Shown piece by piece: positions 25,258 to 33,944 of a DNA stretch of 53,706 bases. The stretch covers positions 1-53,706 of the forward strand of contig JAGWXY010000005.1 in assembly GCA_018969605.1 (NCBI GenBank), written 5' to 3'. Each line of letters opens with the position of its first letter. Positions within the stretch are counted from its first letter, which is position 1. The notes beneath the pieces were generated by a model. That model did no database searches and was not told the origin of the DNA. It worked only from the letters and a program-made list of their open reading frames with translations. Origin of the DNA: Verrucomicrobiota bacterium. Lineage in GTDB: Bacteria > Verrucomicrobiota > Verrucomicrobiia > Verrucomicrobiales > Akkermansiaceae. The position numbers were made by a program, and so were the translations under genes.

Positions 25258-26328
25258 TTAAGACTCCTTTTCTTTGGCTTTAGCTTCCAAATTCATCAAT
25301 TCTGCATCGAAGTCGCTAACATAGAGTCGATCTTGAATGATGCGGTATTTTTCAAACTCGCTCTCGGCATGGGTCTTGGCCAATTCCGCCGTCACCTTGC
25401 CAGCATCCTGAAGGATCTCCCGATCCCAGAGTTGAAGAAATCCGCTCAGGCGCTTTTCCCAGTCTTCCATGGTCATTGGAATTTTTCGCATGGCCTGCAT
25501 TTCAGCCATATCGAGGTAGGCTGAAACAATGCGCTGCATTTGCCCAAGCTCAAAGTCCGTGAGGTAGTTCTTTGCAATGGAAACATCATAGCGATGGATT
25601 TTTCCTTTGGGCGCACCTTCCCAACTGGTCAAACCCATGTTCTCGCGGTCGTGGTTGGCGCGGTCCACGATGACTTCCGCTGCCGTCTGACCATGCACGG
25701 CGTAGTGCATCTTGTTTTGAACCGCCGCAAAGAACCGTTTCGTCGCCGAAGCTGACGGATCATAATCCAGCGCAGTAGAGTAGATGTCGGTGACTTTCTG
25801 GTAAAACTTGCGTTCAGAGAGCCGGATCTCTCGGATCTTCTCGAGCTGACGCTCAAAAAACTCATCAGTCAGGATACCACCTTGCTTGAGGCGCTCGGCA
25901 TCCATCGTCCAGCCCTGAATGGTGTAGTCCTTCACGATCTGGTTCGCCCACTTCCGAAATTGCACAGCGCGCTCGTTCTCAATTTTGAAGCCCACCGCGA
26001 TGATTGCTTGTAGGCTGTAGTGCTCAACGGATCGTTGAACCTGCCTGCTACCCTCGGTTTGAACGATTAAGTATTTCTTAATAGTTGCCTCTGGCTCCAG
26101 CTCATTGTCGCTGAATATGCGCTTTAGGTGCTGGTTGATAGCGGGCACAGAAACATCATAAAGCGCTGCCATCATCTTCTGCGTCAGCCAGATGTTCTCA
26201 TCCTCGTAACGCATTTCCACGCTGGCATCCGATTCGCCCCCTGCAGCCACAAAGGTCAGGTATTCCGCCGCAGAGGAACGGATGATAGAGACCTCTGTGG
26301 GTGTTTTGGACTGTTTTTTTCGGGGCAT
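25258..26328 (-). CDS. rhuM: RhuM family protein
   Basis: A 356-residue protein of the RhuM ('virulence RhuM') family, named from a Salmonella pathogenicity island gene; the molecular function is not established. The N-terminal third, WLTQKMMAALYDVSVPAINQHLKRIF, looks like a helix-turn-helix, followed by VEHYSLQAIIAVGFKI and QFRKWANQIVKDYTIQG, the family core. The C-terminal half is helical, with HYAVHGQTAAEVI and a Lys/Glu-rich end. ATG 26328 was chosen; the open frame to 26577 crosses the direct repeat and thiD. The gene and the two flanking 46-bp repeats form a 1.2-kb unit between apaG and thiD. RhuM genes often accompany restriction systems, and hsd genes are close here. Confidence 0.85.
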   Translation of the reverse strand: MPRKKQSKTPTEVSIIRSSAAEYLTFVAAGGESDASVEMRYEDENIWLTQKMMAALYDVSVPAINQHLKRIFSDNELEPEATIKKYLIVQTEGSRQVQRSVEHYSLQAIIAVGFKIENERAVQFRKWANQIVKDYTIQGWTMDAERLKQGGILTDEFFERQLEKIREIRLSERKFYQKVTDIYSTALDYDPSASATKRFFAAVQNKMHYAVHGQTAAEVIVDRANHDRENMGLTSWEGAPKGKIHRYDVSIAKNYLTDFELGQMQRIVSAYLDMAEMQAMRKIPMTMEDWEKRLSGFLQLWDREILQDAGKVTAELAKTHAESEFEKYRIIQDRLYVSDFDAELMNLEAKAKEKES

Positions 26329-26353
26329 AAACGGAATCTCCAAAGTGCTACCC

Positions 26354-26399
26354 ATGCTTGGCAGTCCCACACCCCTTGCCAAGCATGAAAGAAGTTTGC
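26354..26399. repeat. 46-bp direct repeat, copy B, with internal hairpin
   Basis: A second perfect copy of 25179-25224, including the ATGCTTGGCA/TGCCAAGCAT hairpin. It lies 12-30 bp upstream of the possible thiD starts. Confidence 0.95.
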
Positions 26400-26428
26400 G
26401 CCACCGTGCGATGGGGTTAGTCATGGGC

Positions 26429-27241
26429 ATGCAACGCACGATCCCCGCCGCTCTGACCATTGCCGGATCCGACTGCTCCGCAGGAGCCGGCGCGCAGGCC
26501 GACCTCAAAACCTTCCAGCACTTCCGCGTCCACGGACTCACCGCCATCACCTGTGTGGTTTCGGAAACTGCCCTCACCGTCCGCGGCGTGCACGCAGTGC
26601 CGCCGGCGATGCTCGAGGATCAACTGAGCCTCATGCTCGAATCCTTTCCGCTGCGCGCTGCCAAAACCGGCATGTTGCTAAGCGCCGCTCACATCGAAAC
26701 CACCGCCCGCGTGCTGCGCAACTACCCGCAGCTGCAACTGGTGGTCGACCCGGTGATGATCGCCTCGACCGGCGACCCCTTGCTCGAACCTGATGCGATC
26801 GATGCCTATCGCGAATTGCTCTTCCCACTCGCCACCCTCATCACCCCCAACCTCCACGAAGCCCAAGCCCTGCTAGGCAAAACCATCGCTCACGAATCCG
26901 AACTCGATGCCGCCGCCATCGAACTTCAGCAAAAATGCCACACCCACGTCCTGCTGAAAGGCGGTCACCTCGACCACCCCGAATGCATCGACGCCCTCGC
27001 CGATGCCAACGGCATCCAACGCTTCAGCTCACCACGCCTAGCCGTCCAAGCCTCCCACGGCACCGGCTGCACCCTGTCCGCCGCCATCACCGCCCAACTC
27101 GCCCTCGGCGCAGAGCTTCCCGTCGCTGTCGCGAACGCCAAATCCTACCTCAACGAAACCCTCCGCCAGTCCTACAGCTTCCACTCACCCAGCGGCGAAG
27201 TGATCCACGCGCTGAATCAGGGAACGGATTTTGAGAAATGA
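26429..27241 (+). CDS. thiD: Hydroxymethylpyrimidine/phosphomethylpyrimidine kinase
   Basis: Ribokinase-fold kinase that phosphorylates HMP and HMP-P in thiamine synthesis. Family motifs are ALTIAGSDCSAGAGAQADLKTF at the N-terminus, VVDPVMIASTGDPLL, TPNLHEAQALLG, VLLKGGHL and the anion-hole motif SHGTGCTLSAAI near residue 212. The length of 270 is normal. ATG 26429, 26423 and 26411 are all possible; conserved sequence begins just after 26429. No other thi genes are adjacent. It ends 4 bp before the convergent hsdR stop, so the restriction operon abuts it directly. Confidence 0.93.
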   Translation: MQRTIPAALTIAGSDCSAGAGAQADLKTFQHFRVHGLTAITCVVSETALTVRGVHAVPPAMLEDQLSLMLESFPLRAAKTGMLLSAAHIETTARVLRNYPQLQLVVDPVMIASTGDPLLEPDAIDAYRELLFPLATLITPNLHEAQALLGKTIAHESELDAAAIELQQKCHTHVLLKGGHLDHPECIDALADANGIQRFSSPRLAVQASHGTGCTLSAAITAQLALGAELPVAVANAKSYLNETLRQSYSFHSPSGEVIHALNQGTDFEK

Positions 27242-27245
27242 GCGA

Positions 27246-29549
27246 TCAAGCGACCTGCTCGTAGAGATACCTCTGAAAACTGGCGAACACTTTTCCGATT
27301 TCCTCGGGCTTGCCGAGATCCGCCACGGCATCAGAGATGGAATCGTGGTATCTGAGGCGAAGCAGCGGAGTGAGCTTATCCTGATCGAGCTCTTCCACAC
27401 CTACGCTGACATAATGCTGAAGGACAAAATCAAGGAATGCCTGGTGCTTGGCGCTAAAGTGACTGTGAATCGATAGCCGCGCATGGCTTGCCCGAAACTC
27501 TCGGGTGACGGGTGGTGAGGCGTAGGCAACATATGAAAGCACATCGAAGATATCGGATTTCTCGGCATTGATGATCTTCTGCATTTCGGCGAGTTGTTCG
27601 CTGCCGAAACCCTGCTCGGCGAGACCTTCGAGAAGGTGCTTTCTTGTCTCGGGATTGCTCCAAATGGCCCGCAATTCGTTCTCGTTCTTAAAAAATTCAG
27701 GCAACTTTCCGAAGAGCGATTCCATGAACTGCTGAGCAGACATGGGTGTGCCATCGGGGTGCCAAAAACTCGTCATCATCATGTGCTGGATGCTGCGAGC
27801 TTTGCCGTCGGCGAGCTTGACCTGCACCTTATTGCGTGGGGCGGGAACCTTGGGCCCTTCCTCGGTTGAGGGTGGCTTCGGATTGGGATTCTCTGGCGCA
27901 TGCTTGGGCTCCGGTTCCAGTGGCTCGCCATCCCACTCGGGATCGCTGAAATGGAGGTGCGCTTTGACGAAGTCGTAAATCGTGAAGTAATCCTTACCGT
28001 CGTAGAGCCGGGTCCCGCGTCCGACAATCTGTTTGAACTCGATCATCGAATTGACCGGCCGCATCAACACGATGTTGCGCACATTGCGGGCATCCACTCC
28101 GGTCGAGAGCTTCTGTGAGGTGGTGAGGATGGTCGGGATGCTTTTCTCGTTGTCTTGAAAATCCCGCAGATGCTTCTCACCCAGCGCACCGTCATTCGCC
28201 GTCACACGGTGACAGTAGTCCGCGTCCTTGCTGGTAGAAATCTGGTTGATGCAGTCGCGGACGAAAAGCGCGTGCTCCTGAGTGGCACAGAAAACCAGAG
28301 TCTTCTCGCTTTGTTCGATCATGCTCATGAAGATCTCCACGCGTTTGCGTTCGCGCTCCTTGATCTCGATGTTGCGGTTGAAATCCGCCTCCTCATAGAC
28401 CTTTCCCACCTCGATATCACCATTGATGACCGTGTCGTCAGAGGTGAAGGTGTAATAATCCATCGTTGTCTGGATCTGCTTCACGCGGAAGGGCGTGAGA
28501 AATCCATCGTTGATTCCATCCTTGAGCGAGTAAGTGAACACCGGCTCGCCGAAATAGGCGTAGGTGTCGACGTTGTCCTTGCGCTTTGGCGTGGCAGTGA
28601 GACCGAGATGCACGGCGGGTGAAAAATAATTCAGGATCTCACGCCACGAGCTTTCATCTTTCGCGCCGCCGCGATGGCATTCGTCGATGACGATGAAGTC
28701 GAAAAAGTCCTTTGTGTATTCTCCGAAGTAGGGCGAATCGCCCGGCCCGCTCATGAAGGTCTGGAAGATCGTGAAAAACAAACTGCCGTTCTTCGGCACC
28801 CGGCCCTTCTTGCTGATCTCGCTCGGCTCGATCCTTACCAGCGCGTCTTCCGCAAACGCCGAGAACGCGTTGAACGCCTGATCCGCCAGAATGTTTCGAT
28901 CCGCGAGAAACAAAATGCGCGGGCGGCGCGACGGTTCGCCCGTCAAGTTCCAGCGGCTTTGAAAAAGTTTCCACGCGATCTGAAACGCGATGAAAGTCTT
29001 GCCCGTTCCTGTCGCCAGCGTGAGCAGGATGCGTTTGCGTTCAGCGGCAAGGGCTTCCAGCACACGCTCCACCGCGATGTCCTGATAGTAGCGCCCTTGA
29101 AAAAAACCGCCGCGATCCTCGAAGGGCACTGCCGCGAAACGATCCCGCCATGCATTCTGTTTGGCGAAGGTGAGATTCCAAAGATCCTCCGGCGTCGGAT
29201 AAATGGAAACATCGCCTTCGTGTCCGTGCTCCATGTCGATGCCATAGATGCCCTGCCCGTTGGTGGCGTAAGTGAAGCGGATTCTCAGCTTGTCAGCATA
29301 AGCCTTGGCCTGCGCCACGCCTTCGGTATGAGGCTTGTTCCATGCCTTAGCCTCGACCACCGCCAGTTTGAGATTCCGATACACCAGCACATAGTCCGCG
29401 ATCTCCGGAGTGCCACGCCTCCCACGACCCTCAATGCGGCCGGGGCTGATCTTGTACTCGCGCAAAATGCGGCTGCCTTCCACGACACCCCAACCCGCCG
29501 CCTTGAGGGCGGGGTCGATGTGCTCGGCGCGGGTTTCGGCTTCGTTCAT
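27246..29549 (-). CDS. hsdR: Type I restriction enzyme, R subunit
   Basis: Motor and nuclease subunit of a type I restriction enzyme, 767 residues, close to the EcoAI-like class. The N-terminal nuclease (PD-(D/E)XK) motif is ADYVLVYRNLKLAVVEAK at about residue 50. The SF2 helicase part has LATGTGKTFIAFQ (Walker A, about 185), VIDECHRGG (DExH), GLTATPKR, TSQKLSTGVDARN and QIVGRGTRLY. A C-terminal HsdM-binding helical domain follows. ATG 29549 starts MNEAETR; the longer frame to 29765 overlaps the four-helix gene. It is last in the operon, separated from the four-helix gene by TGAC repeats. All motifs are intact. Confidence 0.94.
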   Translation of the reverse strand: MNEAETRAEHIDPALKAAGWGVVEGSRILREYKISPGRIEGRGRRGTPEIADYVLVYRNLKLAVVEAKAWNKPHTEGVAQAKAYADKLRIRFTYATNGQGIYGIDMEHGHEGDVSIYPTPEDLWNLTFAKQNAWRDRFAAVPFEDRGGFFQGRYYQDIAVERVLEALAAERKRILLTLATGTGKTFIAFQIAWKLFQSRWNLTGEPSRRPRILFLADRNILADQAFNAFSAFAEDALVRIEPSEISKKGRVPKNGSLFFTIFQTFMSGPGDSPYFGEYTKDFFDFIVIDECHRGGAKDESSWREILNYFSPAVHLGLTATPKRKDNVDTYAYFGEPVFTYSLKDGINDGFLTPFRVKQIQTTMDYYTFTSDDTVINGDIEVGKVYEEADFNRNIEIKERERKRVEIFMSMIEQSEKTLVFCATQEHALFVRDCINQISTSKDADYCHRVTANDGALGEKHLRDFQDNEKSIPTILTTSQKLSTGVDARNVRNIVLMRPVNSMIEFKQIVGRGTRLYDGKDYFTIYDFVKAHLHFSDPEWDGEPLEPEPKHAPENPNPKPPSTEEGPKVPAPRNKVQVKLADGKARSIQHMMMTSFWHPDGTPMSAQQFMESLFGKLPEFFKNENELRAIWSNPETRKHLLEGLAEQGFGSEQLAEMQKIINAEKSDIFDVLSYVAYASPPVTREFRASHARLSIHSHFSAKHQAFLDFVLQHYVSVGVEELDQDKLTPLLRLRYHDSISDAVADLGKPEEIGKVFASFQRYLYEQVA

Positions 29550-29575
29550 GGTTTGGGTGGCTGTGGAAACTTCGC

Positions 29576-29607
29576 TGACATCATTGACGACACTGACGAA
29601 GAGGTCA
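29576..29607. repeat. TGAC motifs at 9-bp spacing, hsdR side
   Basis: TGAC occurs at 29576, 29585 and 29594, exactly 9 bp apart, followed by GTCA at 29604. The same periodic motif is found on the other side of the four-helix gene (30422-30477). Confidence 0.7.
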
Positions 29608-29628
29608 ATCGCGGCGCACGGTCTTGCT

Positions 29629-30384
29629 TCATAGCGGCTTGGTCCCTTTGCATTCGGGGTATGCCGTGCAACCCCAGAACTCCCCTTTCGCCGACCTCCG
29701 GCGACGCATGGGCGTGGCGCACAGTGGACAGTCTGGGGCGGGTTCCTTGGCGCGCTGGCCTTCACGGGCTTCGAGGCGCCGGGTGTGAAGGCGCTCGCTG
29801 AAGCCGCCGGTTTCCTCGAAGGCCTTGCCTTGCGCTGCGATCTGCGATTTGAGCATGTTGAGCGATCGCCCGATGATGTGGAGCATCGCGTTGGCCACGA
29901 TCACCGGATCATCCGAGTCCAGCCAGCGAGCGTACTTGCGGCGTTGCTCGAACGCGTGCTTGGCCGACTCGTGGACCATGTCGTCGACAAAGGGTGGTGG
30001 GTCCAGCGAAATGGCATTCACCGCCTTTGCTTCGGGCGAGTGTACCGACCATGGCAGCTCGCCGCGGTCGATGATGAAGACCTCGTAGTCGCCGCGCAGT
30101 TCGCTGAGGCTCGCGCGGGCCACATCGGTGAGTTTCATCTCGGTGTCCTTCGAGGTCGACGAGCGTTCCGAGCCTTCGATGATGTTCTGACGGCCGCTGC
30201 GTGCGGCTTGGGTCATCTGGTCGTATTGTCGGCCCTTGGGGTCGTAAAATTTTCGAGCCGCTTCGCGCGGATCTTGGGTAAGGAAACGCCGGCAAAATCG
30301 CAGCGTCTCTAGCTGCACGATCGTCGCCAGCGTGAACGAATGCAGCTTGCGGAAGCCACCGTGTTTGTCAAAAAGCTCGGCCAT
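29629..30384 (-). CDS. Four-helix-bundle protein with C-terminal C4 zinc finger
   Basis: A 251-residue protein. Residues about 20-120 resemble the four-helix bundle (S23/IVS) family: ATIVQLETLRFCRRFL, MTQAARSGRQNIIEGSER, TEMKLTDVARASLSELRGDYE. A second helical part follows (KYARWLDSDDPVIVANAMLHII). The C-terminus carries a topoisomerase-type zinc ribbon: CPLCATPM, a basic spacer, then GCTAYPECKG. Zinc ribbons of this type bind DNA. The gene sits between hsdS and hsdR on the same strand and is flanked on both sides by 9-bp periodic TGAC repeats, which suggests it entered the operon as a unit. A role in DNA binding or in modulating the restriction system is inference. Confidence 0.8.
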   Translation of the reverse strand: MAELFDKHGGFRKLHSFTLATIVQLETLRFCRRFLTQDPREAARKFYDPKGRQYDQMTQAARSGRQNIIEGSERSSTSKDTEMKLTDVARASLSELRGDYEVFIIDRGELPWSVHSPEAKAVNAISLDPPPFVDDMVHESAKHAFEQRRKYARWLDSDDPVIVANAMLHIIGRSLNMLKSQIAAQGKAFEETGGFSERLHTRRLEAREGQRAKEPAPDCPLCATPMRRRRSAKGEFWGCTAYPECKGTKPL

Positions 30385-30512: not shown

Positions 30513-31592
30513 TCACAAGTCCCCGCTGAAGGCTTGGTGCAGCAGCGACTTCTTCAACTCCTCCAGCGCGGCGAGCTTCCGCTCGTAGAGGCGCGCAAGG
30601 CGTTGGGTTTCTTCTTCGAGTTCGTCGAGCGAATCCACAATGCGAAGCTGAGCTTCCGAATCTTCCGGCACGACAATCTGAAACTTCAGAATGTCGCCCT
30701 TGGCGATGAATGGCTGCGCCGCACCACGCTTGGGGAGTTCAACATGAGTCAGCAGCCGATACAAAAACTTCCCAGCGCAAGTGCCGACGCGAGGCGTCAG
30801 CGTGATTGTGTTCTTGATTGCCGTGAAATCTTCCTCGGGGAGAAACATTCGTCCGCACTGTGCGCCAATCGCGGAGAGAACAGGCGTGTGCTTCGCGTGT
30901 TCCTTGTGTCCAATTCTTCCGTCACAGCCTGCCGCCGAGACGGCTAGATACTTTCCACCATCGACATAGGACGATTTCGTCAGGTCAGTGTTGCCCCAAT
31001 CAACGACGCAAATATCACCAAGGGTCGTCTCCACCCACCCCTCCCCACGCTGGGTGAAGACCGCTTGGAGGTGGCTTTCGAAGAGGGCGCGGGCGTTTTG
31101 GAGGTTCTTTTCGGCGTTGGCTTTGGCGGTGGCGAGGCCCTCAAACGCTTCGTTCAGCAGGCCGACGATCCGCTGCTGCTCGGCCAGCGGGGGGACGGGA
31201 ATTGGTATCTCACGCAGACTCCCTTGGTTGAGCTTCGGAACGGTTAGCCCTGAAACGAAGTCGGTGAGATCGGTGTGATTGAGGTGGTAGATGAGCCAGT
31301 TATCGAGGAGCGTGTTTCGATGCGGCCTCAGTACATGAGCGTGATTGTTGACCCAGATTTTACCTTCGACTGCAAACGCGGTGTTCTCGCCTGATGCCCA
31401 CTTCGCGCCATCTTCGCCGACGAGGACAAGAGGCTCATCAAACAAGTAGCCGGCAACATGATCGAGGACTCCGGTTGCGCCATAGTAGGGATAATCTCCC
31501 GCCTTGCGGTCTCGCTTGGTGATTGGCTTTCGTTTGCTGTCGAGCACGTCGCAAAGCTCGCCCAGCGCCTTTATTTCCCACCCCTTCTTCAT
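30513..31592 (-). CDS. hsdS: Type I restriction-modification specificity subunit
   Basis: DNA-recognition subunit, 359 residues, with two target-recognition domains. TRD1 ends in VPKLNQGSLREIPIPVPPLAEQQRIVGLL, followed by a helical spacer; TRD2 ends in GDILKFQIVVP...AQLRIVDSLDELEEE and a final coiled coil, LYERKLAALEELKKSLLHQAF. This duplicated layout is diagnostic. Start: ATG 31592 opens the family-like MKKGWEIKALGEL. It overlaps by ATGA the stop of a leftover hsdM 3' tail, which marks it as the ancestral start. ATG 31649, with a good SD, now overlaps the KilA-N stop and would add 19 unrelated residues. Recognition sequence cannot be predicted by eye. Confidence 0.92.
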   Translation of the reverse strand: MKKGWEIKALGELCDVLDSKRKPITKRDRKAGDYPYYGATGVLDHVAGYLFDEPLVLVGEDGAKWASGENTAFAVEGKIWVNNHAHVLRPHRNTLLDNWLIYHLNHTDLTDFVSGLTVPKLNQGSLREIPIPVPPLAEQQRIVGLLNEAFEGLATAKANAEKNLQNARALFESHLQAVFTQRGEGWVETTLGDICVVDWGNTDLTKSSYVDGGKYLAVSAAGCDGRIGHKEHAKHTPVLSAIGAQCGRMFLPEEDFTAIKNTITLTPRVGTCAGKFLYRLLTHVELPKRGAAQPFIAKGDILKFQIVVPEDSEAQLRIVDSLDELEEETQRLARLYERKLAALEELKKSLLHQAFSGDL

Positions 31593-31633
31593 AGCAGCGC
31601 CTTGATGTTGCCCAGCACTTCCGCGCTCCCGGC
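31589..31633 (-). pseudogene. Duplicated remnant of the hsdM 3' end
   Basis: On the minus strand this reads ...AGSAEVLGNIKALL-stop, close to the hsdM end ESAEVLGNIKQLLN. The DNA segment 31601-31633 matches 32502-32534 at 31 of 33 bases. Its TGA overlaps the hsdS ATG (ATGA), the usual hsdM-hsdS junction. It therefore looks like the original hsdM end, stranded when the KilA-N gene came in between. Confidence 0.75.
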
Positions 31634-31645
31634 TTTCAATGGTTT

Positions 31646-32476
31646 TCATTTCTCCTGCCTCCCTTCCGGCAGCCGGGGCGTGCGTTCGTCGGCGGTGAGC
31701 AGTTTCATCTGCTGGATGGCGATTTGGTTGAGGCGGGTGAGGCGTTCGGATTGAGGCAGAGCTTGACCGATAAAGAGCGCGTTGAGGTTTTCGAGGTTGG
31801 AGAGGCAGACGAGCTGAGCGCCAGTGGCTTGGTCGCGGATGTTACCTTTTTCGTCGAGGTTCTTGGCACGCCATTGGGCGGCGGTCTGACCGAAGAGGGC
31901 CATGTTGAGCACATCGGCTTCGCTGGCATAAACGAGGCTGGTCTGGGCTTTGCCCAACTCCGGCGGAATGAGGTGGGTCTGGATGGCGTCGGTGTGGATG
32001 CGGTAGTTGATTTTGGCGAGGTTGCGGCGGATGTCCCAGCCGAGGGTCTGGCGCTCAGTTTCCTTGAGCCGTTGAAACTCTTTGATGAGGTAGAGCTTGA
32101 ACTCGACCGAGATCCACGCGGCAAACTCCAGGGCGATGTCCAAGTGGGCATAGGTGCCGCCGTAGCGACCGGCCTTGGATTGGATGCCGGTGGCACCGGT
32201 ACGCTCGATCCACTGCTTCGGGGTGAGGGTGAAGCTGTTGAGGCCTGCCTGCATTCTAATCCCGTCGAATTCGACGGGATTAAAACTGGGGTTATTGATC
32301 TGCTCCCAAAGCCCGAGGAACTCGAGGGTGTTGCGGTTACGCAGCCAGTTGCGGATCAGGTCGTCACTGGCATCCGCGTTTTTGTACCGGGCGATGTCGG
32401 TCAGGCAGACGTAATCCTGGTCGTTGACCCCGGTGAGGCGGACTTTGCGGGTGAGAACTTCGATTTTCTTAGGCAT
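31646..32476 (-). CDS. KilA-N domain protein inserted between hsdM and hsdS
   Basis: A 276-residue protein with a KilA-N DNA-binding domain, common in phages and large DNA viruses. The domain spans about residues 20-130: YVCLTDIARYKN, IRNWLRNRNTLEFLGLWEQINN, then GRYGGTYAHLDIALEFAAWISVEFKLYLIKEFQRLKE, the typical end. The C-terminal half is helical (NRIHTDA-like region, ASEADVLNMALFG, CLSNLENLNALFIG). It overlaps the hsdM end by 8 bp and is followed by a copy of the hsdM tail before hsdS, so it was probably inserted within the operon. Effects on the restriction system are unknown; a regulatory or anti-phage part is a guess. Confidence 0.87.
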   Translation of the reverse strand: MPKKIEVLTRKVRLTGVNDQDYVCLTDIARYKNADASDDLIRNWLRNRNTLEFLGLWEQINNPSFNPVEFDGIRMQAGLNSFTLTPKQWIERTGATGIQSKAGRYGGTYAHLDIALEFAAWISVEFKLYLIKEFQRLKETERQTLGWDIRRNLAKINYRIHTDAIQTHLIPPELGKAQTSLVYASEADVLNMALFGQTAAQWRAKNLDEKGNIRDQATGAQLVCLSNLENLNALFIGQALPQSERLTRLNQIAIQQMKLLTADERTPRLPEGRQEK

Positions 32477-33944
32477 GGGTATGATCGGTGTTCAAGAGTT
32501 GCTTGATGTTTCCCAGCACTTCCGCGCTCTCGGCGTCCAGCGCGGTGATTTCGTCCATGATTTCCTGCGGGCTGCGGTGCGTGATTTCCTCACCGCCGTT
32601 GGGATTCTTCACGGACAAATCAAAGGTCTTCGGGTCGATGTCCGCCACATCCACGCTCCAACTTTTCGCCGAATCGGCAAAGGTCCGCTGCTGCTCAATG
32701 AAATCCGCCAGGTCCGCATCATTCAGCGGGTTGGTCTTCCCCATATTACGGCCGGGGTCGAGCTGATAGAACCACACCTTGCGCGTCTTCGTGCCTTTCT
32801 CAAAGAAGAGCACCACCGTCTTCACGCCCGCGCCGATGAAGGTGCCGCCGGGGCAGTCGAGCACGGTGTGGAGGTTGCATTCTTCGAGGAGCTTCTGGCG
32901 CAGGCTCACCGAGGCGTTGTCGGTGTTGGAGAGGAAGGTGTTCTTGATCACAACGCCCGCGCGGCCTCCGGCCCTGAGGATCTTGATGAAGTGCTGGAGA
33001 AAGAGGAACGCCGTCTCGCCGGTGCGGATCGGGAAGTTTTGCTGCACTTCCTTGCGCTCTTTGCCGCCGAAGGGCGGATTGGCCAGCACCACATCGAAGC
33101 GGTCCTTTTCCTGAATGTCCGAGAGGTTTTCCGCGAGGGTGTTGGTATGAACGATGTTTGGCGCCTCGATGCCGTGGAGGATCATGTTCATCACGCCGAT
33201 CACATAAGCGAGCGACTTCTTTTCCTTTCCGTAAAAGGTGCGGCTCTGGAGGGTCGTGAGGTCCTTCGTGGTCAGGTTGGCGGAGCTTTTGAGGAAATCG
33301 AAAGACTCGCAAAGGAAGCCGGCGGAGCCGCAGGCGGCATCGTAAATCGATTCGCCGATCTTTGGGTTCACCACCTGGATGATGGCGCGAATGAGCGGGC
33401 GCGGCGTGTAGTATTCGCCGCCGTTGCGCCCGGCATTGCCCATGTTCTTGATCTTCGCCTCATAGAGGTGGGACAGCTCGTGTTTCTCCTTCTGCGAGCC
33501 GAACTTCAATTCGTCAATGTGGTCAATGATGTCCCGCAAGTTGTAGCCGCTGCTGATCTTGTTTTTAATTTCCCCGAAAATCTCGCCGATCTTGTACTCG
33601 ATGGTACCCGGTCCGGTGGCCCGCTGCTTGAAGCCGTGCAGGTAGGGGAATAGCTTCTGGTTGACGAAGTCCCGGAGGTCATCGCCAGTGAGGGCCTGGT
33701 GGTGGTCGATTTTGCCCGAGCCATCCCTTGGTGCGGCCCAAGAGGACCAGCGATAGGGAGCTTCCAGAATGTGGGTGTATTTCCTGCCCTCCAACGCCGC
33801 GACATCGGCTTTTTCATGCTCGAGGCTGTCGAGGTATTTCAAGAAAAGCAGCCAAGAGGTCTGCTCGGAGTAATCCAGTTCGCTGGTGCATCCGGCGTCC
33901 TTGTAGAGGATGTCGTCGATATTTTTGAAGGTCTGTTCAAACAT
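32469..33944 (-). CDS. hsdM: Type I restriction-modification methyltransferase subunit
   Basis: N6-adenine DNA methyltransferase, 491 residues. The N-terminal helical domain is MFEQTFKNIDDILYKDAGCTSELDYSEQTSWLLFLKYLD. The SAM-binding region is GEYYTPRPLIRAII ... IYDAACGSAGFL (motif I, about residue 205), and the catalytic motif IV is VVLANPPFGG (about 280). The C-terminus interacts with HsdS. It is first in the operon hsdM-KilA-N-hsdS-four-helix-hsdR. Its last residues, beyond VLGNIK, differ from the remnant near hsdS, which may mean that the tail was re-formed when the KilA-N gene inserted. The gene looks functional. Confidence 0.95.
   Translation of the reverse strand: MFEQTFKNIDDILYKDAGCTSELDYSEQTSWLLFLKYLDSLEHEKADVAALEGRKYTHILEAPYRWSSWAAPRDGSGKIDHHQALTGDDLRDFVNQKLFPYLHGFKQRATGPGTIEYKIGEIFGEIKNKISSGYNLRDIIDHIDELKFGSQKEKHELSHLYEAKIKNMGNAGRNGGEYYTPRPLIRAIIQVVNPKIGESIYDAACGSAGFLCESFDFLKSSANLTTKDLTTLQSRTFYGKEKKSLAYVIGVMNMILHGIEAPNIVHTNTLAENLSDIQEKDRFDVVLANPPFGGKERKEVQQNFPIRTGETAFLFLQHFIKILRAGGRAGVVIKNTFLSNTDNASVSLRQKLLEECNLHTVLDCPGGTFIGAGVKTVVLFFEKGTKTRKVWFYQLDPGRNMGKTNPLNDADLADFIEQQRTFADSAKSWSVDVADIDPKTFDLSVKNPNGGEEITHRSPQEIMDEITALDAESAEVLGNIKQLLNTDHTHA

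What the first reader, a model, noticed from the sequence alone, without database searches (positions are those of the whole stretch)
31589..32534. KilA-N gene inserted between hsdM and hsdS, leaving a copy of the hsdM tail
Just before hsdS, the minus strand carries a stop-terminated copy of the hsdM C-terminus (SAEVLGNIK..LL), whose TGA overlaps the hsdS ATG as in ordinary hsdM-hsdS junctions. The true hsdM has the same segment (31 of 33 bases match) but now runs on into the KilA-N gene with 8 bp overlap. The simplest reading is insertion of a KilA-N gene with duplication of the hsdM end, preserving expression of all genes.
Basis: partly seen in the sequence, partly recalled or inferred. Interest (0 to 1): 0.7.

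Follow-up and report, generated by a model that had tools for sequence, protein, structure and literature searches.

The report
Defence gene insertion leaves gene-end scar
A candidate anti-virus gene sits wedged between two genes of a bacterial DNA-cutting defence system, and a leftover copy of the first gene's end shows how it got in without breaking its neighbours.

Summary
Confirmed: a 38-nt copy of the hsdM 3' end (34/38; core 31/33) lies between the KilA-N gene and hsdS; the 863 nt between the copies hold only that gene. Relatives without KilA-N show the empty site: hsdM overlaps hsdS by ATGA, and in L173 the 45 nt ending there match the remnant at 44. So the remnant is the displaced native hsdM end. 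Two corrections. (1) The insertion probably did not happen in this genome: the junction recurs in a clade of KilA-N genes, and window hsdM is a mosaic (breakpoint ~nt 864, 0/1000 permutations), its 3' third resembling another class member's. (2) hsdS may now start at an ATG overlapping the KilA-N stop, reading the remnant in another frame as a 19-aa leader. KilA-N matches PADLOC's unvalidated candidate PDC-S22. Tail copies recur with other hsdM families and other inserted genes, and host-sequence repeats flank PDC-S22 elsewhere (e.g. a radA-like gene). They are not the rule: 3 of 20 inserts in an hsdM-based survey, all in the window's phylum. Best mechanism (inferred): recombination anchored in the upstream gene with an illegitimate far junction.

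The parts
32469..33944 (-). hsdM, type I DNA methyltransferase subunit; its C-terminus runs on to ...LGNIKQLLNTDHTHA instead of ending ...LGNIKALL*
   Evidence: Pfam N6_Mtase E 3.7e-65, HsdM_N; tail compared with relatives
32469..33081 (-). 3' part of hsdM with other ancestry (mosaic breakpoint near nt 864 of the gene)
   Evidence: max-chi-square test, 0 of 1000 permutations as high; sliding identity
32502..32539 (-). upstream (coding) copy of the hsdM tail repeat
32469..32476 (-). 8-bp overlap of hsdM end and KilA-N start
31646..32476 (-). KilA-N gene, 276 aa, PADLOC candidate defence family PDC-S22; the only gene I assign to the insert
   Evidence: Pfam KilA-N E 3.5e-21; PDC-S22 E 3.8e-129; predicted fold KilA-N plus helical C-terminal part
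31646..31649 (-). ATGA: KilA-N stop overlapping an in-frame, SD-preceded candidate start of hsdS
31589..31638 (-). remnant: displaced native end of hsdM including stop TGA overlapping the classic hsdS ATG; repeat core 31601-31638
   Evidence: empty-site relative L173 matches 44 of the 45 nt 31633-31589 and the next 11 nt
30513..31649 (-). hsdS, specificity subunit; classic start ATG at 31592 (MKKGW), longer in-frame start at 31649
   Evidence: Pfam Methylase_S E 2.8e-37
29629..30384 (-). four-helix-bundle suffix plus Zn-ribbon gene between hsdS and hsdR
27246..29765 (-). hsdR ORF (EcoEI-type R subunit; true start probably lies inside the ORF)
   Evidence: ResIII E 1.6e-37, EcoEI_R_C E 7.9e-32

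Best explanation
A single candidate defence gene (KilA-N, PDC-S22) was embedded at the hsdM/hsdS overlap of an ancestral type I restriction operon by recombination that extended or replaced the end of hsdM and left the native hsdM end, with the hsdS start, displaced downstream. Shown: the empty site, the displaced native end, a one-gene insert, the same junction in other operons of one KilA-N clade, and a mosaic hsdM in the window whose 3' third resembles that of another class member. Inferred: the window lineage received [hsdM 3' third, KilA-N, remnant] by homologous recombination; the founding insertion used homology on the hsdM side and an illegitimate junction on the other (homology-facilitated illegitimate recombination); hsdS is now started by re-initiation at the KilA-N stop, so that the remnant no longer serves hsdM and is read in another frame as an HsdS leader; the KilA-N protein is a DNA-binding accessory of the defence operon.
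For: Relatives without KilA-N have hsdM ending at the remnant's stop with ATGA overlap to hsdS. L173 matches 44 of 45 nt of the remnant through ATGA and the next 11 nt; over a 52-nt core it matches 47, the window's own upstream copy 37. Same junction in L032, L033, L061, L066, L069, L070, shortened in L064, decayed in L065; these lie with the window in one strongly supported KilA-N clade. hsdM mosaic: left of nt 864, 116 of 159 informative sites match same-genus L172 rather than L173; to the right 26 of 105 do (0 of 1000 permutations as high). L184 (a different inserted gene): hsdM 97-100% like L197 in most windows (83-93% in some), falling to about 77-85% over the last ~100 nt, with a native-type tail left before hsdS. 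In-frame ATG at the KilA-N stop in 6 of 6 loci of the clade with hsdS directly downstream; SD energy -10.6 there versus -2.7 at the classic start in the window. Tail copies with other hsdM families: L042, L092, L090.
Against: In the hsdM-ascertained survey only 3 of 20 inserts carry a tail copy, all in the window's phylum; 0 of 12 in the two other phyla, so duplication is not a necessary result of embedding. Mosaicism is not special to the window: L173 itself gives 14 of 1000 as a control, and with L171/L197 as parents the window's best breakpoint moves to nt 1323 (1/1000). For L184 only one of three parent pairs puts the break at the tail (L197/L175, nt 1368, 8/1000); the other two put it at nt 139 and 178, in a badly aligned 5' end. 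Both window copies share the LGNIK motif, which also fits plain in-place duplication. No donor was found. The HsdS start rests on sequence only; the anti-SD was recalled, genome-wide SD use could not be tested, and in L066 the classic start also has a strong SD (-9.8). In L074, L042 and L092 the hsdS frame is not open through the remnant.
Confidence: 0.7

Rival explanations
1. In-place duplication: the KilA-N gene was put in by a transposition-like or break-repair event that duplicated about 33-60 nt of target, with no donor hsdM involved.
For: Both window copies share LGNIK, while the KilA-N-less hsdM ends read LKSIK, LKTIR, LETIR or RKNIG; insert is one gene. L173, however, has LGNIK without KilA-N.
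Against: Repeats around KilA-N genes reach 230-260 nt at 82-87% identity (L103, L105), unlike usual transposon target duplications (recalled); no transposase or integrase in the insert; in L184 the hsdM end looks exchanged, not copied (but see the mixed test).
Confidence: 0.22
2. The KilA-N family is itself a single-gene mobile element (homing-like) that moves from gene end to gene end and carries or copies the host gene's end.
For: Direct repeats flank KilA-N genes more often than other genes of the same loci (18 of 94 versus 11 of 343, Fisher p 1e-6; size-matched others 5 of 157), also outside restriction operons: a radA-like gene in L132, a helicase gene in L105, the start of an aminotransferase-like gene in L054; I see KilA-N alone between the repeats in these. 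Repeat cases outside the window clade are scattered on the KilA-N tree (10 changes for 11 rows).
Against: No nuclease or recombinase seen in Pfam, NCBIfam or the PDB fold search, weak negative evidence; the test can only find one-gene inserts and compares a gained gene with mostly resident ones; other genes (four-helix, DUF3800, TPR, GmrSD-like) leave the same scars, so the mechanism need not be KilA-N's own; the 18 hits include the same genome twice and several members of the window clade.
Confidence: 0.2
3. The repeat is a general hsdM/hsdS regulatory or translation signal, not a scar.
For: In the tail-copy cases looked at closely (window clade, L042, L092, L074, L184) the copy runs into the hsdS start.
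Against: It codes for the hsdM C-terminus in empty-site relatives; SD strength in the tail is weak in the window and L173 (-2.7), though strong in some relatives; inserts without a tail copy exist; the remnant decays (internal stop in L066 and L070, short repeats inserted in L198 and L061).
Confidence: 0.03

Closest known systems
Defence genes embedded in type I R-M operons ('guilt by embedding'; PADLOC PDC/HEC families)
   Same: KilA-N gene matches PDC-S22 and is embedded between hsdM and hsdS; embedding of a defence pair within a type I system is described in PMC12255303 and PDCs in PMC12988326 (passages read)
   Different: The displaced hsdM end and mosaic hsdM, which bear on how a gene gets in, were not in the passages or listings I saw. 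The founding preprint (10.1101/2024.01.29.577857) is not held and was not read
Integrative elements that replace a host gene's 3' end and displace the native end (icd/e14, tRNA genes; recalled)
   Same: Host gene keeps a working end on the incoming side; the native end is left downstream
   Different: Here the insert is one ~830-bp gene without an integrase gene
Homology-facilitated illegitimate recombination (PMC3240628, start of abstract seen in listing)
   Same: Homologous crossover on one side, illegitimate junction on the other
   Different: Inferred from scars, not observed; here it would insert a gene between two overlapping genes
hsdM-hsdS overlap of EcoKI (PMC3510504, passages)
   Same: Native junction overlaps and is translationally coupled in EcoKI
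   Different: Here coupling seems moved to the KilA-N stop, with the old overlap kept as relic
DdrC of Deinococcus radiodurans (PDB 8u0g, 7qvb)
   Same: Predicted KilA-N protein resembles full-length DdrC (Foldseek E 2e-3; VIA Z 9.8 over 191 residues)
   Different: 12% identity, rmsd 15.5 over both domains; a shared fold does not show a shared function

Membership tests
Type I restriction-modification system | HsdM, HsdS and HsdR domains in one gene cluster | tested here: met
   N6_Mtase/HsdM_N, Methylase_S, ResIII/EcoEI_R_C
Type I restriction-modification system | methylation and cleavage activity | not testable with these tools
   needs methylome sequencing and restriction assays
KilA-N domain family | Pfam PF04383 above gathering score | tested here: met
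   75.5 bits versus 23.8
PADLOC PDC-S22 | profile match over nearly the full protein | tested here: met
   E 3.8e-129, residues 3-270 of 276
PDC-S22 as a defence system | protection against phages | not testable with these tools
   a candidate family; most PDCs await validation (PMC12988326 passages)
Integrative element with displaced 3' end (icd/e14 type) | integrase gene inside the insert | tested here: not met
   insert holds only the KilA-N gene
Integrative element with displaced 3' end (icd/e14 type) | displaced native gene end downstream of the insert | tested here: met
Homing endonuclease gene | nuclease domain | tested here: inconclusive
   no Pfam or NCBIfam nuclease, none noted among the best folds; a fold that is not listed is not excluded
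Homology-facilitated illegitimate recombination product | homologous exchange on one side of the insert | tested here: met
   mosaic hsdM in the window, 0/1000 for 4 of 5 parent pairs and 1/1000 for the fifth, breakpoint differing in that one; L184 mixed
Homology-facilitated illegitimate recombination product | illegitimate junction on the other side | tested here: inconclusive
   insert end abuts the middle of the hsdM tail, but the founding donor is not known
DdrC-like proteins | shared fold of both domains | tested here: inconclusive
   Z 9.8, 9.7 and 8.2 for three DdrC entries, next unrelated rows 6.2, but rmsd about 15 and largely helical

The most novel reading that the evidence does not exclude
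KilA-N genes of the PDC-S22 family spread as integrase-free one-gene cassettes that settle at the ends of host genes, in and outside restriction operons, and each arrival leaves the host gene's native end as a displaced scar. Such scars date and orient the building of embedded defence operons, and the displaced end can be turned into new coding sequence for the next gene.
Probability: 0.3. Interest if true: 0.75.

Novelty: new variant of a known kind. Interest (0 to 1): 0.52.

Why it matters
Embedding of accessory genes inside overlapping defence operons is a current route to finding new anti-phage systems, but how a gene gets between two overlapping genes without breaking either was not explained in the passages I could read. 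The displaced hsdM end, the near-exact empty site and the mosaic hsdM give a readable record of the event, and such scars can be searched for to tell recent insertions from old neighbours and to find other cassettes.

Tried and rejected
Generality of tail copies: tested on hsdM-ascertained loci and rejected as a rule (3 of 20 inserts). The set was 122 loci, 103 with hsdM and a downstream hsdS (19 without a detected hsdS were set aside). It came from 25 of 27 non-own places, 7 chosen places of the longer list, 46 of 48 places and 44 of 49; places left out were mostly those where hsdM was cut short or the contig ended. The null mixes related hsdM tails and is therefore strict.

An RBS inside the hsdM tail as the reason for the duplication: in the window and L173 the tail SD is weak (-2.7), while other relatives have a stronger one (-6.3 to -9.4), and the strong SD of the window lies at the KilA-N stop. 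I dropped it as the main cause.

A foreign tail on the radA-like gene of L132: both copies resemble the ends of this gene in relatives, so no donor is shown there.

Tandem KilA-N genes in L067 and L068: an early note of mine read them so. A check found only about 60 nt of a KilA-N 3' end plus a tail copy before the KilA-N gene, no second gene. Withdrawn.

A nuclease or recombinase in the KilA-N protein: none seen in Pfam, NCBIfam or the PDB searches; absence is weak evidence.

Control: of the 18 KilA-N hits, L032/L062 and L033/L063 are the same genomes in two collections, and L064, L065, L067, L068 belong to the window clade, so independent events are nearer 10. The 11 control hits include three 16-17 nt matches and two insertions behind hsdS. 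The window itself was not among the hits of that test, though its repeat is clear. The tree uses 81 of the 102 KilA-N proteins; of the ten rows labelled for the window junction, L065 is decayed, L064 short, and L067 has its copy before, not after, the gene. An earlier count gave '30 loci', '0 of 14' for the survey and 'tandem K'; right are 28, 0 of 12 and no tandem gene.

Plasmid and phage searches with the KilA-N protein (27 and 35 records, one of each at 60-80% identity, the rest below) were not followed up. In one search, L041 and L182 are the same place.
Full report
What is there. On the minus strand the cluster reads hsdM (33944-32469), a KilA-N gene (32476-31646), hsdS (start 31592 or 31649, end 30513), a four-helix-bundle/Zn-ribbon gene and hsdR. 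hsdM and KilA-N overlap by 8 bp. Between the KilA-N stop and the classic hsdS start lies a copy of the hsdM end: 34 of 38 nt, core 31 of 33, E 2e-10 against 4.5 kb of downstream sequence, while five other gene ends of the locus showed no such copy.

The empty site. A search of 59 related genomes found close hsdM relatives at 79-85% identity. In L003, L005, L006, L011 and L020 hsdM ends ESAEVL(KT, KS or ET)I(R/K)(A/G)LL*, its TGA overlapping the hsdS ATG as ATGA; L002 and L004 carry one codon more; L007 and L008 have another insert. A wider set gave L173 (G182, same class), whose hsdM ends LDAESAEVLGNIKALL*. The 45 nt from GCC to ATGA match the window remnant at 44, and the next 11 nt, the start of hsdS, are identical. 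Over a 52-nt core L173 matches the remnant at 47, the window's own upstream copy at 37. The remnant is therefore the displaced native hsdM end, and the hsdM of the window has a new C-terminus (QLLNTDHTHA).

Probably not a local event. The same KilA-N-remnant junction occurs in L032 (same genome as L062, L197), L033 (same as L063, L198), L061, L066, L069 and L070, shortened in L064 and decayed in L065. Record titles name Verrucomicrobia, Akkermansia, cyanobacteria and, for L064, a planctomycete; all are MAGs. On a tree of 81 KilA-N proteins the ten rows that I labelled for this junction lie in one starred clade of 13 rows and need 2 changes (shuffled mean 9.6; caveats on three of the ten under Tried and rejected). 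Window hsdM is a mosaic: of 264 sites that separate same-genus L172 (no KilA-N) from L173, 116 of 159 left of nt 864 match L172, against 26 of 105 to the right (0 of 1000 permutations as high). Four of five parent pairs place the break at nt 811-892; L171/L197 places it at 1323 (1/1000). Controls: L173 14/1000, L197 77/1000, so hsdM may recombine elsewhere too. Sliding identity to L173 rises from 61-86% to mostly 85-97% in the last ~600 nt, with one dip to 77%. The simplest reading is that KilA-N, the remnant and the hsdM 3' third came in together by homologous recombination.

How the founding event may have worked. The clearest sibling case is L184, where a four-helix-bundle gene (TIGR04258) sits between hsdM and hsdS. 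Its hsdM is 97-100% identical to L197 in most windows and 83-93% in some, then drops to about 77-85% over the last ~100 nt; a native-type tail (34 nt, 97% to L197; 83 nt including the hsdS start, 82% to L173) remains before hsdS. The break test for L184 is mixed: L197/L175 gives nt 1368 (8/1000), the two other pairs give nt 139 and 178 in a badly aligned 5' end. An exchange anchored in hsdM with an illegitimate far junction would leave this; the process is described as homology-facilitated illegitimate recombination (PMC3240628, start of abstract seen in the listing). It is an inference; no donor was found.

Expression. In EcoKI hsdM and hsdS overlap and are translationally coupled (PMC3510504, passages). 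In the window the hsdS frame is open from an ATG overlapping the KilA-N stop (31649) through the remnant: MKTIESRERGSAGQHQGAA-MKKGW. SD energy is -10.6 kcal/mol there and -2.7 at the classic ATG; in L069 -11.5 and -5.5; in L197 -6.2 and -2.7; in L066 the classic start has -9.8 (anti-SD recalled). In 6 of 6 loci of this clade with hsdS directly downstream (L001, L032, L033, L066, L069, L070) an in-frame ATG overlaps the KilA-N stop, with the classic start 54 or 102 nt after that stop; over all, 14 of 26 KilA-N/hsdS rows have such an overlap. The remnant no longer serves hsdM: in L066 and L070 its hsdM frame holds a stop, and in L198 and L061 short repeats are inserted. It may now be an HsdS leader read in another frame. 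In L074, L042 and L092 this is not so.

How general. Of 28 hsdM/hsdS loci with a gap of at least 250 nt, 21 of them with KilA-N, 13 show a tail repeat at E <= 0.01, one of them (L158) at chance level. Outside the window clade these are L092 (69 nt, 78%, E 9e-13), L090 (copy behind KilA-N, another gene before hsdS) and L042 (39 nt, 87%, E 6e-10), whose hsdM is only 24-28% identical to the window's; and, with hsdM of the window's wider family, L074, L097 (copy inside the KilA-N reading frame), L157 (the L184 genome) and L101 (RhuM-family genes between hsdM and KilA-N; copy before KilA-N, 29 nt, 93%). L061 carries two stacked inserts, KilA-N and a DUF3800 gene, each followed by a tail copy. Inserts behind hsdS leave hsdS-end copies in L063 (TPR gene, 92 nt, 97%) and L070 (GmrSD-like gene, 101 nt, 93%). 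Against this, a survey that started from hsdM found 20 inserts over 400 nt in 103 hsdM-hsdS pairs, with a tail copy in 3 (L184, L197, L198): 3 of 8 in the window's phylum (Verrucomicrobiota, judged from the titles of L062 and L063) and 0 of 12 in the phyla of L132 and L092. Tail scars are recurrent, not the rule.

KilA-N outside restriction operons. Flanking direct repeats within 250 nt were found for 18 of 94 KilA-N genes and 11 of 343 other genes of the same loci (p 1e-6; caveats under Tried and rejected). Examples are L132, where the gene follows a radA-like gene (name from memory; Pfam KaiC-type ATPase and LapB-type Zn ribbon) whose last 69 nt are repeated behind it (81%); L105, with a 231-258 nt copy (87%) of a DEAD-helicase gene's end around a broken KilA-N gene; and L054, with 64 nt of the start of an aminotransferase-like gene (name from memory) repeated. 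Relatives of L132 match both copies. KilA-N genes are patchy: 66 of 387 genomes of the window's phylum and 10 of 250 of L132's order (stricter E). This leaves open a bolder reading, that the family moves as a one-gene cassette.

What KilA-N is. It matches PADLOC's PDC-S22 (E 3.8e-129). PDCs are putative defence candidates found by guilt-by-embedding, most awaiting validation (PMC12988326, passages); embedding of DarTG2 in a type I system is described in PMC12255303 (passages). The predicted fold (mean pLDDT 86, pTM 0.56) has a KilA-N domain like Mbp1 (Z 6.2) and as a whole is nearest to the DNA-binding protein DdrC (Foldseek E 2e-3; Z 9.8, rmsd 15.5). No nuclease or recombinase was seen.

Novelty. 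Embedding of such genes is known. The displaced hsdM end with a near-exact empty site and a mosaic hsdM was not described in anything my searches showed (passages); the preprint that founded the PDC families is not held and was not read. I file it as a new variant of a known kind.

Noticed in passing
window 25258-26577 (-): RhuM-family gene (PADLOC PDC-S05), separated from hsdR by a phosphomethylpyrimidine kinase gene on the other strand (26282-27241); a second candidate defence gene near the operon.
   Followed up: partly
window 29629-30384 (-): Four-helix-bundle suffix gene with Zn ribbon between hsdS and hsdR; genes of this family occupy the hsdM/hsdS slot in L184 and, by similarity to L184, in L171.
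   Followed up: partly
L171:2419-3098: A four-helix gene lies where most of KilA-N would be; KilA-N pieces remain before hsdS and end in ATGA directly on the hsdS start.
   Followed up: partly
L061:5828-6820: Two stacked inserts (KilA-N, then a DUF3800 gene), each followed by an hsdM tail copy.
   Followed up: partly
L063:7071-8287 and L070:7047-9328: A TPR gene and a GmrSD-like gene inserted behind hsdS, each followed by a copy of the hsdS end (92 nt at 97%, 101 nt at 93%).
   Followed up: partly
L067:1352-1447 and L068:695-788: About 60 nt of a KilA-N 3' end and an hsdM tail copy lie before the KilA-N gene; no second KilA-N gene was found upstream.
   Followed up: yes
L132:4792-5862; L221:2879-2986: KilA-N behind a radA-like gene with a 69-nt copy of its end; in a relative a short KilA-N-like relic (45% over 38 residues, E 1e-6 in that locus) lies behind the same gene.
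   Followed up: partly
L198 and L061 remnants: A 24-nt repeat (CCTGCCCTGAGCAAAGTCGAAGGG) inserted in the remnant at the same place, a second in L198; the frame of the next gene (hsdS, in L061 the DUF3800 gene) stays open.
   Followed up: no
L097:5782-5825: The KilA-N C-terminus contains a copy of the hsdM tail, as if a scar became coding sequence.
   Followed up: no
KilA-N protein, model m587dcb89b7ef: Whole-protein resemblance to Deinococcus DdrC, a DNA-damage response protein.
   Followed up: partly
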